Assembly: GCA_945902075.1 (NCBI GenBank)
Contig: CAMDMA010000010.1
Location: 1 to 64,000 of the forward strand
DNA from: Candidatus Kuenenia stuttgartensis
GTDB lineage: Bacteria; Planctomycetota; Phycisphaerae; Phycisphaerales; SM1A02
Length of the DNA: 64,000 bases
Reading direction: 5' to 3'
Position numbers and translations under genes: made by a program. Below the pieces are notes generated by a model. The model had not been told where the DNA came from. It did not search any database and saw only the letters and a list, made by a program, of their open reading frames with translations. Below, one piece after another: positions 1 to 5,424 of this stretch (position 1 is the first letter of the stretch; each line of letters starts with the position of its first letter).

Positions 1-783
1 GAACAGGCGAAGCGCGATCTTTCGGGCGGCAACCTCCGACTTGTGGTCTCGATCGCAAAGAAGTATCGCAACCGCGGACTCCCCTTCCTCGACATCATCC
101 AGGAAGGCAATACAGGCCTTATGCGTGCGGTCGACAAGTACGAGTACAAGCGCGGATACAAGTTCTCGACGTACGCGACATGGTGGATCCGCCAGGCGAT
201 CACTCGCGCGATCGCCGATCACGCACGGACGATCCGAGTCCCAGTCCACATGATTGAGACCATGTCGAAGTTGCGGAACATTCAGAAGGCGCTGCTTCAA
301 GAACTCGGCCGCGAGCCGACGATTGAAGAAATCGCCATCAAGGCGAAGATGCCGATTGAAGAGACGCGACGCGTGATGAAGATCTCGCGCCATCCAATCT
401 CTCTCGACCGTCCGGTCGGCGAGAGCGAGGACTCCCACTTCGGCGACTTCATCGAGGATGAACGTCAGGCGAGCCCGTCGGATTCGGCAACGAGCGACAT
501 GCTTCGTCAACGCATCAACGATGTGCTCAAGACCCTGACCTACCGCGAGCGCGAGATTCTGAAGCTCCGCTACGGCATTGGCGACGGCTATACGTACACA
601 CTCGAAGAAGTCGGCCGCATCTTCAAGGTCACGCGCGAGCGCGTCCGCCAAGTCGAGTCGAAAGCGATTCGGAAGCTACAGCATCCAGTGCGTCGTCAGC
701 GTCTCGCGAGTTTCCTCCCGGGTCACATGGCAGACCTCGAGGGCGAGCCAGATGCGATGAGTGATGTCGGCGCAGATGATTGA
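1..783 (+). CDS. rpoD: RNA polymerase sigma-70 factor, housekeeping type (5' end outside window)
   Basis: The reading frame is open from base 1, so the gene starts upstream of the window; the internal GTG at 43 is a codon inside region 2.1, not a start. The visible 260 residues contain sigma-70 region 2 ([24 protein letters not shown], the core-binding and -10 recognition stretch [17 protein letters not shown]), region 3 ([11 protein letters not shown]) and region 4 with a helix-turn-helix ([20 protein letters not shown]) that binds the -35 element. These near-invariant motifs mark a primary (RpoD/SigA-type) sigma factor rather than an ECF factor. The product directs core RNA polymerase to housekeeping promoters. 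About 40 residues follow region 4.2, a slightly long tail. A strong terminator lies about 60 bp downstream, so this is the last gene of its transcript. Confidence 0.95.
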
Positions 784-2890: not shown

Positions 2891-3163
2891 TCAGCGCTGC
2901 TTCAAGTAATCCTCAAGCCGCTCAGCTTTCCGCACGAGAAACGGAACATGCTGTTCTGACACGCGCAAAAACTTCACCAACACCTTCATGGTTTGGTCGA
3001 ACTCTTCCGCAAATTTTTGCTGCTCCTGATCTTTCCAACTGCCTTGGAGTGCGCCCATCTTGGCGCCCATTGCACTCACTTGGCCCTGAAGTTCACCATT
3101 AAACCGGTGAAGATCTTGGGCGAAGCGGCGGAGTTCTTGTGGGTCTGCGATTGCCTTAGCCAT
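2891..3163 (-). CDS. WXG100-like small helical protein (ESX-type)
   Basis: A 90-residue, almost wholly helical protein: helix, short turn, helix. The turn carries W43-K-D45 with an aromatic at F51. This matches the WXG100 (EsxA/ESAT-6) plan in length, in a Trp at the hairpin and in an aromatic eight residues later; Asp replaces the usual Gly. In known systems such proteins form dimers and are exported by type VII secretion. The C-terminal YxxxD/E export signal is not obvious here (the end is LEDYLKQR). It follows a second Trp-hairpin protein by 27 bp and precedes the aldehyde dehydrogenase by 9 bp. No FtsK/EssC-type ATPase lies nearby, so a secreted role is inference; an intracellular helical-bundle role is also possible. 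Confidence 0.6.
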   Translation of the reverse strand: MAKAIADPQELRRFAQDLHRFNGELQGQVSAMGAKMGALQGSWKDQEQQKFAEEFDQTMKVLVKFLRVSEQHVPFLVRKAERLEDYLKQR

Positions 3164-3190
3164 GGCCGCAGTTTACCCAGCAGGCACGGG

Positions 3191-3415
3191 TCATGATCGG
3201 TCATCGCCACACTCGTTCCGGACCCGGCGGAGCGTTTCGTCCATCATGTCGAGTGCGTTCATGGCTGCCCGGAGTTGCTTATCGATCGGATCGATCGATC
3301 GCTCCTTGAACGCCCGCGAGGTGTCGTCACGCCATGCCTGCTCGATGCGGTACCACGCGTGCATGAGATCGCGGTGGGCAGAATTCAAGCGTGCTTTCGA
3401 ATCGGAAAGACTCAT
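3191..3415 (-). CDS. Second Trp-hairpin small helical protein, probable partner of the WXG100-like protein
   Basis: A 74-residue helical protein whose centre reads AWRDDTSRAF: W28-R-D30 and F36, the same Trp-x-Asp and eight-residue Trp-to-Phe spacing as in the adjacent 90-aa protein. The two therefore look like paralogous halves of a pair, as is common for Esx proteins, though sequence identity is low. Its start codon overlaps the stop of the upstream coiled-coil gene (ATGA), so translation is probably coupled. Conserved acidic and basic residues flank the hairpin. No signal peptide or membrane segment. Function unknown. Confidence 0.55.
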   Translation of the reverse strand: MSLSDSKARLNSAHRDLMHAWYRIEQAWRDDTSRAFKERSIDPIDKQLRAAMNALDMMDETLRRVRNECGDDRS

Positions 3416-4104
3416 TGCGCCCCCCCATTGATCGCCCCTCTCGCGGTATCGCTCGCGGTCTCTCGTGCGATATCACATGCAGCAGACAACGTCCGCTCGT
3501 CAGACTCGAGTTCTGCCCGCTGGCGCGCGGCCGCTGCCTCTTCTTCGGCCGTCTGCACTTCCCCAGCACGACGCATCGAAGCAATTCGGCTTCGAGCACG
3601 TTCGAGTTGTTCGCCCAGCGAAACACTCGGAGTTGCCAAGTACGCTTCGAGCGCAAGGGCCATATTTCTGAGCCGGAGAATTGCGTCAGGCAGATCTCGG
3701 TCCACAAGCGTCGCGAGCGGCGACATGGCACCCTTGAACATCGAAACGTCCCGCTCGAGTGTGGCCAACCAGCGACGCGTCCGCTCAAGCCGCTCGCGCG
3801 CCTCTTCCGTTCGAACCTTTGCGCGCGCGACGGCCTTCTTCTCGTCAATGATGGATGGCCGCTGGCCAGTGCCCATCGTCTGCATTTCTTTGCGATAGAG
3901 CGCGCTCTTCGCAGCCGTCAGTTCTTCATCAAGCCGCGGGACCGCACGTTTCCAGTGCAGCATGCGGTCCCGCTCAAGCCAGATGAATGTGGACTTGACC
4001 TCACTGTCCGCCTCCGACACCGCGATACCAAGCTCCTCGCGAAACTTAATGAGCGCGCGTCGAAACTCGTCGAGTGCTGCGATATCGGTGATGTTGGCGG
4101 ACAT
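3412..4104 (-). CDS. Coiled-coil protein of unknown function in the WXG100-like operon
   Basis: A 230-aa soluble, highly charged and helical protein. It contains an aromatic stretch (TFIWLERDRMLHWKRAV), a long coiled-coil-like middle (residues about 85-135) and an Ala/Glu-rich C-terminal helix. I do not recognise a named family. It starts 6 bp after the MFS transporter and overlaps the next gene by 4 bp, so it is co-transcribed and probably translationally coupled with the two Trp-hairpin proteins. A scaffold, chaperone or larger helical partner for them is a reasonable inference; nothing in the sequence proves it. It lacks a signal peptide. Confidence 0.65.
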   Translation of the reverse strand: MSANITDIAALDEFRRALIKFREELGIAVSEADSEVKSTFIWLERDRMLHWKRAVPRLDEELTAAKSALYRKEMQTMGTGQRPSIIDEKKAVARAKVRTEEARERLERTRRWLATLERDVSMFKGAMSPLATLVDRDLPDAILRLRNMALALEAYLATPSVSLGEQLERARSRIASMRRAGEVQTAEEEAAAARQRAELESDERTLSAACDIARETASDTARGAINGGAQ

Positions 4105-4110
4105 CAGTGC

Positions 4111-5424
4111 TTAGGCCTGTCGCTTCTTCGAGGGATAAAACAAGAGCATCAACACGAAGCACGCAAGTGCCATATACATCGGCACGCTAAAGAGCTTCGT
4201 GTAGTCCATCGGGGATGCTCCACCATCGGTCGCGTACTTGGCAACCACACTCGTCGCGAAGATGCTGCCGACGATGATGCCGATACCGACGATGACAAGA
4301 TTGAAAAGGTTTTGCGCGGTTGCGCGGATGTCGGGCGTGGTGTTCTCATCAACGACCATGAAGGCGACGAAGATGAAACAACCGAAGCACAACCCGTGAA
4401 GTGCAACACCGAGAAGTACGAACGGCAGGGTGGGAAGGAAAGCGAAGAGCGCCATACGAGCCGCGTAAGCGGCGATGCCAGTGAGGAGAAGTGTCTTTCG
4501 CGAAACTGTCTTCGAAAAGAACGGAATCGCTGCAAGTACGAGAAGCTCAGTCATCTGACCGATCGTCATGAGCCCGCCACCTCCGACGCCGAGAACCTGA
4601 TTCACAGAGCGCGCAAATGAGTTGGCGCCTTCGCTGTTCGCGGAATTCTGAATGGCACCAACAAAGTCGCTGGTGAAGATGAAGTAGAACTGATGCACCA
4701 TGCTGATCGGGACCGCGATGAGAAAGAGCGTGATCAACGGCTGCTTGAAAATCTCTTTCACGCCTTCGAGCCACGCAGTCTTTTCAACCGAGGACCTCGT
4801 CGGCGGCGTATGCGGCAGCGTCATGCAATAGAACGCCATGACAAGCCCGAGTCCGGCGCTGATTTGAAACGCGACGGCGCGTCCCGCATTTTGAGCGGCA
4901 GCCACAGCCTCCGTGCTCTCACCCGTCGGAGTGTGGAAACGCAGGAGGATTTGACCAACCGCGATGCCCGCTGCAATCCAGCCTAGGGTGCCCCACAAAC
5001 GCACTGGACCGAAGTCGCGATCGCGGTCGGCGAGATTCGCAAAGGAAATCGAGTTGGTGAGCGCGAGGGTTGGTGCGTACACGAGCCCGTACACAAACGA
5101 CAGAGCAAGGAAGACCTCAAACTGCGCAGCACTTGCGAGAAAGTAGACGAGCACCGCGCCGACGAGATGGCTGAACGCGAGCAATCGCTCGGTCGCAAAA
5201 GAACGGTCGGCGAGCTGGCCTGCGATGAATGGTCCAGCAAGCGCACCAACAGCTCCAGCCATCAGACACAACCCGGTCTGGTCGAGGCTGAAGCCCCGGT
5301 GACCCATGAGAAACGGATAGAGAATCGGAAGCCACGCACCCCAGATCGCGTACTGGAGAAACATCATCAGGCTCAGTCGGGACCTCACATACGCGGGACT
5401 CGCAACGGCAGTCGTGGGACTCAT
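4111..5424 (-). CDS. MFS transporter, nucleoside:H+ symporter-like
   Basis: A 437-aa integral membrane protein with about twelve hydrophobic segments, starting MSPTTAVASP and preceded by a good ribosome binding site (AGAGGAG) 5-8 bases from ATG 5424. It has a WGAWLPILYPFLM first helix and the RLWGTLGWIAAGI motif seen in the NupG/XapB-type nucleoside:H+ symporters of the major facilitator superfamily. It likely imports a nucleoside or related small molecule across the inner membrane. The frame stays open further upstream to 6840, but that part is antisense to ispG and not coding. It is the first gene of the leftward operon with the WXG100-like genes and aldehyde dehydrogenase; no obvious pathway links them. 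Confidence 0.82.
   Translation of the reverse strand: MSPTTAVASPAYVRSRLSLMMFLQYAIWGAWLPILYPFLMGHRGFSLDQTGLCLMAGAVGALAGPFIAGQLADRSFATERLLAFSHLVGAVLVYFLASAAQFEVFLALSFVYGLVYAPTLALTNSISFANLADRDRDFGPVRLWGTLGWIAAGIAVGQILLRFHTPTGESTEAVAAAQNAGRAVAFQISAGLGLVMAFYCMTLPHTPPTRSSVEKTAWLEGVKEIFKQPLITLFLIAVPISMVHQFYFIFTSDFVGAIQNSANSEGANSFARSVNQVLGVGGGGLMTIGQMTELLVLAAIPFFSKTVSRKTLLLTGIAAYAARMALFAFLPTLPFVLLGVALHGLCFGCFIFVAFMVVDENTTPDIRATAQNLFNLVIVGIGIIVGSIFATSVVAKYATDGGASPMDYTKLFSVPMYMALACFVLMLLFYPSKKRQA

What the first reader, a model, noticed from the sequence alone, without database searches (positions are those of the whole stretch)
2891..4104. WXG100-like pair plus coiled-coil partner in one operon of a probable diderm
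Two adjacent small helical proteins share a W-x-D hairpin with an aromatic exactly eight residues later (W43/F51, W28/F36), matching the ESAT-6 spacing. A coiled-coil protein is translationally coupled to them, between a transporter and an aldehyde dehydrogenase. ESX systems are mainly known from monoderms; no EssC-like ATPase is present here. This could be an undescribed helical-pair system.
Basis: partly seen in the sequence, partly recalled or inferred. Interest (0 to 1): 0.65.

Follow-up and report, generated by a model that had tools for sequence, protein, structure and literature searches.

The report
Type VII-like secretion genes in Planctomycetota
Three small genes in this planctomycete belong to a four-gene set resembling the type VII protein-export machine of Gram-positive bacteria; the motor gene lies elsewhere in the genome, and the set recurs across this outer-membrane phylum, but whether it exports anything has not been shown.

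Summary
The 90-aa protein is a WXG100 member over Pfam's cut-off; the 74-aa one is a divergent WXG100-like relative; the 230-aa one is predicted as a long helical hairpin.

In relatives the trio is followed by a ~1300-aa FtsK/SpoIIIE-type ATPase (61 of 81 loci). Its N-terminal part lies at the broken end of contig C9 here. In 392 genomes of the phylum, P1 is in 61, the ATPase in 62, both in 59. The ATPase has three modules, only the middle one with intact Walker motifs; Foldseek ranks EccC and EssC first.

The kind is not wholly new: a 2012 table footnote (PMC3482391) reports solo WXG domains with such an ATPase in planctomycetes. Added here: the second WXG-like protein, the hairpin, strict co-inheritance, and a plasmid relative with a nuclease-toxin and an immunity gene in the hairpin's place. 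Export is not shown; plasmid ATPases lack the membrane pair. Verdict: new variant of a known kind.

The parts
2891..3163 (-). P1: WXG100 family protein, 90 aa (EsxA/HP0062-like by homology); W43 codon 3035-3037, D45 codon 3029-3031, F51 codon 3011-3013
   Evidence: PF06013 43 bits, cut-off 27.3; profile of 41 relatives matches HP0062 (3fx7, 2.6e-12), then EsxB and EsxA; one match per genome in nearly all genomes that have it
3191..3415 (-). P2: short WXG100-like protein, 74 aa; W28 codon 3332-3334; near-invariant Cys69
   Evidence: PF06013 15.8 bits, below cut-off; TIGR03930 20.9 bits, below cut-off; 12 of 38 relatives match PF06013 at E up to 1, best 1.5e-6; P1 and P2 profiles align over the bend, hhalign probability 77%; W28 and D30 in 38 of 38, C69 in 37 of 38
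3412..4104 (-). P3: 230-aa protein, predicted long antiparallel helical hairpin (helices 8-74 and 86-157) with a variable C-terminal tail
   Evidence: AlphaFold2 mean pLDDT 92.0, pTM 0.61, 66 sequences; no Pfam or NCBIfam family at E up to 5; a relative in the stretch around P1 in 73 of 81 loci
3412..3415 (-). 4-base overlap of P3 stop and P2 start (ATGA)
   Evidence: sequence; same spacing in 63 of 78 named relatives

Best explanation
The three genes are the small-protein half of a type VII secretion-like system of the kind found in diderm bacteria. Shown by sequence or prediction: P1 is a WXG100 protein; P2 is a shorter WXG100-like protein; P3 is a long helical hairpin; [quoted passage not shown] The four genes are inherited as one set. 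Inferred: P1 dimerises as HP0062 and EsxA do and is the primer or obligatory substrate; P2 packs on the P3 hairpin the way WXG100-like Lap proteins pack on LXG domains, giving a folded helical shaft; W-x-D plus a C-terminal acidic residue forms a composite signal that docks on the ATPase; ATP hydrolysis in the middle module drives the shaft across the inner membrane. No toxin domain was recognised in P3 of Planctomycetota, so cargo and outer-membrane step are unknown. On a Helicobacter plasmid the gene in the P3 position is a nuclease toxin followed by its likely immunity gene, which suggests that this position is the cargo slot.
For: Co-occurrence in 392 genomes of the phylum: P1 61, ATPase 62, both 59 (Fisher p 9e-64, relatedness not corrected). 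P3 and P2 in 12 of 13 P1-positive genomes tested, also where unlinked, and in 0 of 16 P1-negative ones. Gene order P1>P3>P2>ATPase in 56 of 80 named loci (the best 80 of 556 relatives). ATPase: 16 of 16 match EccCa, EccCb and EssC models and 11 of 16 match FtsK at E up to 1e-5, best values 6.8e-37, 3.7e-32, 2.2e-31 and 1.3e-10; Foldseek best EccC 1.7e-31, EssC 8.1e-19, FtsK 5.5e-13; two hydrophobic segments before the first module in 42 of 54; Walker A and B intact only in module B of 43 sequences, as only D1 Walker motifs are needed in EssC of S. intermedius (PMC13355648). P1 matches EsxA/EsxB chains, has an acidic residue at 84 in 40 of 41 and Y86 in 41 of 41. No strong hydrophobic stretch in P1, P2 or P3 (0 of 80, 78, 79), i.e. 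no sign of a Sec signal. Helicobacter plasmid: WXG100 > helical protein with WHH nuclease domain (44.6 bits, cut-off 25.1) > SUKH-1 (29.1, cut-off 25.4) > 77 aa > FtsK/SpoIIIE.
Against: No secretion has been measured. The ATPase model has three modules, not four as in EssC (PMC11217815). T7SS model scores are far under their equivalog cut-offs, and a phage FtsK/SpoIIIE-like family (phrog_1358, best 2.7e-54) scores better than EccCa; SspH also matches 16 of 16 (best 1.3e-28). YukD and YukC/EssB not found over cut-off in 10 genomes (one sub-threshold YukD match, G316). The bend is W-x-D, not W-x-G. YxxxD/E in the last 25 residues: 0 of 80 P1, 1 of 78 P2. HxxxD/ExxhxxxH: in the last 30 residues of 69 of 80 P1 (17 in shuffles), but 0 of 80 in the last 20; in P2 12 of 78 in the last 30 (19 in shuffles). 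The five plasmid ATPases show no pair of membrane segments, at most one borderline one, so for them export is doubtful. The Caballeronia set sits beside CARF, VWA, kinase and phosphatase genes, which I recall as typical of intracellular conflict systems. The Helicobacter toxin's N-terminus shows no sequence relation to P3. Discordant genomes: P1 without a scored ATPase in G488 (E 9.9e-4, probably chance) and G431 (partial ATPase at a contig end); ATPase without P1 in G361, G468, G499 and, outside that draw, G135; G253 has P1 and ATPase but no P3 or P2 found. Nine of 53 mapped planctomycetal ATPases show fewer than two segments. In this genome only model positions 26-438 of 1323 are seen.
Confidence: 0.6

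Rival explanations
1. An intracellular conflict or stress-response complex: the ATPase is a chaperone-like motor that assembles, holds or releases a helical scaffold (P1, P2, P3) inside the cell; nothing is exported. In Planctomycetota it is merely tethered to the membrane.
For: The five plasmid ATPases show no membrane pair; the Caballeronia operon continues with CARF, VWA, PP2C, kinase and AAA genes and the Rhodococcus AH-ZY2 one lies beside TerD and DUF475 genes; NTP-dependent conflict systems with vWA and AAA parts in planctomycetes are described in PMC7159879 (passages). No toxin family was among those shown for 36 P3 proteins (25 of 83 families shown).
Against: WXG100 plus EccC/EssC-like ATPase is the pair common to all T7SS (PMC11217815, PMC10765036); an immunity gene beside the Helicobacter nuclease fits an exported toxin better than a suicide toxin; 42 of 54 planctomycetal ATPases have two membrane segments; apart from the trio and the ATPase span, no same-strand neighbour recurs in more than 13 of 81 loci.
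Confidence: 0.25
2. The ATPase moves DNA (an FtsK, SspH or conjugation-coupling relative) and the small helical proteins are its adaptors.
For: FtsK motor domains align to the middle module with the top Z (27.0, 256 residues); SspH and phage FtsK-like models match 16 of 16 members.
Against: FtsK matches one module; EccC aligns over 490 residues (Z 25.6, rmsd 5.9) and 731 residues (Z 25.0, but rmsd 15.3), and Foldseek ranks EccC and EssC above FtsK; T7SS models beat FtsK in each of five ATPases scanned singly; WXG100 partners are not known to me for DNA translocases (recalled); the genome has a separate FtsK on C3 that looks like the cell-division one.
Confidence: 0.08
3. The trio is an orphan remnant in this genome: the ATPase here is truncated for real and the small proteins have another job.
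For: In this genome only model positions 26-438 of 1323 are found.
Against: The match runs to the contig end (12-1241 of C9) and the neighbouring gene is conserved as in G002 (83% over 368 codons by tblastx); three congeners have full-length matches (one, G002, with two TGA inside the matched span); P1 is under strong purifying selection.
Confidence: 0.04

Closest known systems
Diderm WXG plus three-module YueA-like ATPase sets (PMC3482391, table footnote 6; passages read)
   Same: Planctomycetes named; WXG protein with an ATPase of three HerA/FtsK domains, only the middle one active
   Different: The footnote speaks of solo WXG domains and of apparently mobile versions; here there is a second WXG-like protein and a hairpin protein, and P1 is in 45 of 46 sampled genomes of the family, one match in each
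Helicobacter HP0062 cluster (3FX7; PMC3397514, passages) and the Helicobacter sp. NHP19-012 plasmid operon
   Same: WXG100 hairpin with a WRD bend, best PDB match of P1; FtsK/SpoIIIE gene in the cluster
   Different: The plasmid version has a nuclease toxin and a SUKH-1 gene in the P3 place and an 823-aa ATPase without the N-terminal membrane pair
T7SSb of Bacillota (EsxA, EssC, LXG toxins with Lap partners; PMC13355648 and PMC10765036, passages)
   Same: WXG100 protein; multi-module ATPase with catalysis needed in one module; small helical partners beside a long helical protein
   Different: No YukD or EssB over cut-off; three modules and no FHA match in five ATPases; no LXG family match in P3; W-x-D bend
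T7SSc to T7SSj of Gram-positives (PMC11217815, passages)
   Same: WXG100 protein and EccC/EssC-type ATPase are the shared parts
   Different: Reported from Actinomycetota and Bacillota, with four NTPase domains in the ATPase and further components

Membership tests
WXG100 superfamily (PF06013): P1 | score over Pfam's curated cut-off | tested here: met
   43 bits, cut-off 27.3
WXG100 / ESAT-6 subfamily (TIGR03930): P1 | score over NCBIfam's curated cut-off | tested here: not met
   37.9 bits against 44.85
WXG100 superfamily (PF06013): P2 | score over Pfam's curated cut-off | tested here: not met
   15.8 bits; TIGR03930 20.9 against 44.85; works like one, not filed as one
WXG100 superfamily | glycine in the W-x-G motif at the bend | tested here: not met
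   W-x-D in 80 of 80 P1 and 78 of 78 P2; HP0062 likewise has WRD
Type VII secretion system (any subtype) | EccC/EssC-like membrane ATPase in the same genome | tested here: met
   own genome C9, N-terminal part only; 59 of 61 P1-positive genomes; best Foldseek matches EccC and EssC
Type VII secretion system (any subtype) | curated equivalog cut-offs of EccCa, EccCb or EssC | tested here: not met
   86-121 bits in the five ATPases, against cut-offs 346-778
Type VII secretion system (any subtype) | four NTPase modules in the ATPase | tested here: not met
   three modules in the model of the 874-residue soluble part
Type VII secretion system (any subtype) | composite export signal (bend tryptophan plus C-terminal hydrophobic-xxx-acidic) | tested here: inconclusive
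   W43-x-D45, and A80-xxx-acidic 84 in 40 of 41; YxxxD/E 0 of 80
T7SSb | YukD/EsaB and YukC/EssB | tested here: not met
   none over cut-off in 10 genomes; the B. subtilis control rang
T7SSa (ESX) | EccB | tested here: inconclusive
   none in 10 genomes, but no control rang either
Type VII secretion system (any subtype) | ATPase-dependent export of the WXG100 protein | not testable with these tools
   needs culture work
LXG substrates with Lap partners: P3/P2 | LXG family match in P3 | tested here: not met
   window P3: 0 Pfam families at E up to 5
Diderm WXG/YueA-like sets of PMC3482391 | three HerA/FtsK modules, only the middle one active | tested here: met
   in relatives, as this genome's copy is cut before the modules

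The most novel reading that the evidence does not exclude
Planctomycetota carry a chromosomal protein-export machine of the type VII kind reduced to one membrane protein (a two-helix, three-module ATPase) and three helical proteins, working across a diderm envelope; the long hairpin protein is the cargo scaffold, replaced by or fused to toxins in plasmid-borne relatives of other phyla and kept toxin-free as a housekeeping substrate in Planctomycetota.
Probability: 0.4. Interest if true: 0.8.

Novelty: new variant of a known kind. Interest (0 to 1): 0.55.

Why it matters
In the papers read here, type VII secretion is a described system of Actinomycetota and Bacillota (PMC11217815), while Gram-negative WXG100/FtsK sets have not been confirmed as secretion systems (PMC10765036). 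If the four-gene set exports, it is a type VII system in an outer-membrane phylum with a shorter parts list than the five-part T7SSd of PMC11217815, and would show what the core of the machine is and how it copes with an outer membrane.

Tried and rejected
Chance match or orphan trio: rejected. Housekeeping FtsK as the motor: the C3 match (L005) looks like the cell-division FtsK and is a weak relative of the fourth gene (48.6 bits). Phage origin: the P1 profile finds no relative in viral contigs; P1, P2 and P3 match no PHROGs or PADLOC family at E up to 0.01. A specific fold for P3: Foldseek best E 0.046, VIA-align Z at most 11.2 with mixed coiled-coil hairpins such as Smc arms, YscO, Vipp1 and PI3K; taken as a generic long hairpin, no function read from it. 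FtsH-ternary reading (one P3 member hit fvmYukDl_N at 0.0074): dropped, as the conserved neighbourhood does not show the parts described in PMC7159879 (passages and section 21 read). HxxxD/ExxhxxxH motif: in P1 it lies inside helix 2, treated as inconclusive. The P2 count (81 of 81) is inflated because that profile also hits P1; I did not use it. P1 and P2 themselves were not structure-predicted.

Not in print, as far as searched: WXG100 or type VII secretion with planctomycetes was sought (also 32 and 49 on side questions). The only statement linking WXG proteins to planctomycetes that I found is the PMC3482391 footnote (read by DOI; also listed). Sutcliffe 2011 and Unnikrishnan 2017, cited for Gram-negative WXG100 in PMC10765036, are known to me here only as references and were not read; they may say more. 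Papers seen as passages: PMC3935865, PMC3397514, PMC11217815, PMC4631099, PMC3843698, PMC10765036, PMC2763215, PMC13355648, PMC3482391; PMC7159879 as passages and one section; all others as listings.

Full report
WHAT IS THERE. Three co-directional genes on the minus strand encode P1 (2891-3163, 90 aa), P2 (3191-3415, 74 aa) and P3 (3412-4104, 230 aa). They lie between an MFS transporter gene (4111-5424) and an aldehyde dehydrogenase gene (1406-2881). P3 and P2 overlap by four bases; P2 and P1 are 27 bases apart. P1 is a WXG100 protein over Pfam's cut-off (43 bits against 27.3), though under NCBIfam's (37.9 against 44.85). P2 is below both, but 12 of 38 relatives hit PF06013 at E up to 1, best 1.5e-6, and the P1 and P2 profiles align over the bend (hhalign 77%). 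P3 matches no family.

CONSERVATION. P1 is found in 74 of 151 genomes of the order, including 45 of 46 of the same family (counted from the listing, which does not print 57 negatives but puts nearer kin first). Of 41 loci read in the order, the window included, 38 hold P2 and 39 hold P3 near P1. Two of the exceptions are at contig ends; the third (G077) has P3 and P2 on another contig. Elsewhere the order is P1-P3-P2; in the window's genus it is P3-P2-P1. In the phylum P1's profile finds 61 of 392 genomes, in many families. P3 is in the stretch around P1 in 73 of 81 loci. Sequence change among 7 close relatives is strongly constrained, P1 most.

THE MISSING MOTOR. Clustering all ORFs within 8 kb of P1 in 81 loci gave a fourth conserved, same-strand gene in 61 of them, downstream of the trio: a ~1300-aa FtsK/SpoIIIE-type ATPase. 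Of the 20 loci without it, some end at a contig edge and some are rearranged. In the window's genome the ATPase profile finds positions 26-438 of 1323 at the very end of contig C9. The frame is 49% identical to the congener G002's ATPase and its neighbour is conserved. In G002 the trio and the ATPase are on one contig about 180 kb apart. The C-terminal, catalytic part of this genome's copy was not found in the assembly. In the 392-genome draw P1 occurs in 61, the ATPase in 62, both in 59 (Fisher p 9e-64, without correction for relatedness). The discordant five are a marginal P1 hit (G488), a partial ATPase beside P1 at a contig end (G431), and three ATPase-only genomes, two in pieces and one with the gene at a contig start. 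In the order, G135 has a cut ATPase but no P1 hit, and 16 P1-negative genomes have no ATPase match above 50 bits. P3 and P2 follow the same pattern: 12 of 13 P1-positive genomes, 0 of 16 P1-negative; the miss is G253 (86% complete, 5% contaminated). In G358 the set is split into P1-P3 and P2-ATPase. So the four genes travel as one set even when unlinked.

WHAT THE MOTOR IS. Of 16 aligned ATPases all match the type VII models EccCa, EccCb and EssC, and 11 match FtsK, at E up to 1e-5; scores are far under the equivalog cut-offs. A phage FtsK/SpoIIIE-like family scores higher still (phrog_1358), and SspH comes close. By profile against PDB sequences the best are T. curvata EccC, EccC5 and YukB. 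The AlphaFold2 model of the soluble part of a relative (874 residues, pLDDT 85.4, pTM 0.65) shows three alpha/beta modules. Foldseek's best matches are EccC (1.7e-31) and EssC (8.1e-19), then FtsK (5.5e-13). VIA-align gives FtsK motor domains the top Z on the middle module (27.0, 256 residues); EccC follows at 25.6 (490 residues, rmsd 5.9) and 25.0 (731 residues, rmsd 15.3); ESX or Yuk DUF domains match modules A (Z 14.3-14.7) and C (14.9-15.5). Walker A and B are complete only in module B in 43 sequences. In S. intermedius EssC only the D1 Walker motifs are needed for export (PMC13355648). Two hydrophobic segments precede the first module in 42 of 54 long ATPases (one in 6, none in 3, three in 2, one not mapped).

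P1 AND P3. P1's profile hits HP0062 of H. pylori first (2.6e-12), then EsxB and EsxA. HP0062 is a homodimeric hairpin with WRD at its bend and a FtsK/SpoIIIE gene in its cluster (PMC3397514, passages). P3 is predicted with confidence as two long antiparallel helices; the fold search gives only generic coiled-coil hairpins. Some P3 proteins carry an Imm33-like C-terminal domain (4 of 36, best 7.3e-8); many end in acidic tails.

RELATIVES OUTSIDE THE PHYLUM. A search of 72,556 plasmids with P1 gave 2 records, and with a planctomycetal ATPase at E up to 1e-40 gave 5, in Caballeronia, Helicobacter, Deinococcus and two Rhodococcus. Their ATPases score 245-580 bits against the planctomycetal profile, and P1-like proteins 40-90 bits in four of the five. 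In the Helicobacter plasmid the P3 place holds a helical protein with a WHH/colicin-type nuclease domain, followed by a SUKH-1 gene, both over Pfam cut-offs. In Rhodococcus AH-ZY2 the neighbouring 314-aa protein matches the P3 profile (5.9e-10 in a set of 26; hhalign 86%) and continues into another C-terminal region. In Deinococcus a 144-aa neighbour matches P2 (hhalign 90%). Against the simple story: the Helicobacter toxin's N-terminus shows no sequence relation to P3, and none of the five ATPases shows a membrane pair.

HOW IT LIKELY WORKS. See Best explanation. Shown: parts, co-inheritance, motor type, catalytic module. Inferred: P1 dimer, P2-P3 shaft, docking by W-x-D plus acidic residue, threading across the inner membrane. 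Unknown: cargo, outer-membrane step, whether anything is exported. The main rival is an intracellular complex, favoured by the plasmid ATPases without a membrane pair and the signalling genes beside the Caballeronia set.

NOVELTY. PMC3482391 (2012; [quoted passage not shown] The single active middle module found here agrees with it. Added relative to that line: the second WXG-like protein and the hairpin as fixed partners, the near-universal single-copy presence in one Phycisphaerales family, the membrane pair, and the toxin and immunity genes in the P3 place of one plasmid. I therefore call it a new variant of a known kind, interest 0.55.

Noticed in passing
P3 genes in L049, L051, L057, L058, L066: Some P3 proteins have a C-terminal extension with a DSGW motif (seen in the alignment); 4 of 36 members match the Imm33-like family PF24719, best 7.3e-8.
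   Followed up: partly
window 3191-3415: P2 relatives keep a cysteine near the C-terminus (C69, 37 of 38); no role known to me.
   Followed up: no
window 1-783: What looks like a sigma-70-type factor gene begins the window; a homologue lies near P1 in 11 of 81 loci, none beyond this order.
   Followed up: no
window about 933-1001: Short tandem repeat (about five copies of a 14-base unit) downstream of the sigma factor gene, seen by eye.
   Followed up: no
L261 (Caballeronia sp. SBC2 plasmid): WXG100 and FtsK/SpoIIIE genes in one run with VWA, CARF (DUF1887), PP2C, kinase and AAA genes; a 113-aa protein has a weak hit to a CATRA-associated small protein (E 0.026).
   Followed up: partly
L266 (Rhodococcus pseudokoreensis plasmid): ATPase gene followed by a 203-aa protein with a C-terminal hydrophobic segment (mean KD 3.2), next to Hsp70 and GrpE genes.
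   Followed up: no
L262 (MT836827, faecal contig filed as bacteriophage): 1424-aa relative of the ATPase (tblastn 7e-58) followed by a 351-aa ORF with a weak WXG-like N-terminus.
   Followed up: no
L174, L239: Records titled Limnohabitans and Chitinophaga pinensis carry Phycisphaerales-like loci of this set; probably mislabelled or mixed MAGs.
   Followed up: no
G224 C126 and C138: One genome of another family has two ATPase matches, one cut at a contig start, but one P1.
   Followed up: no
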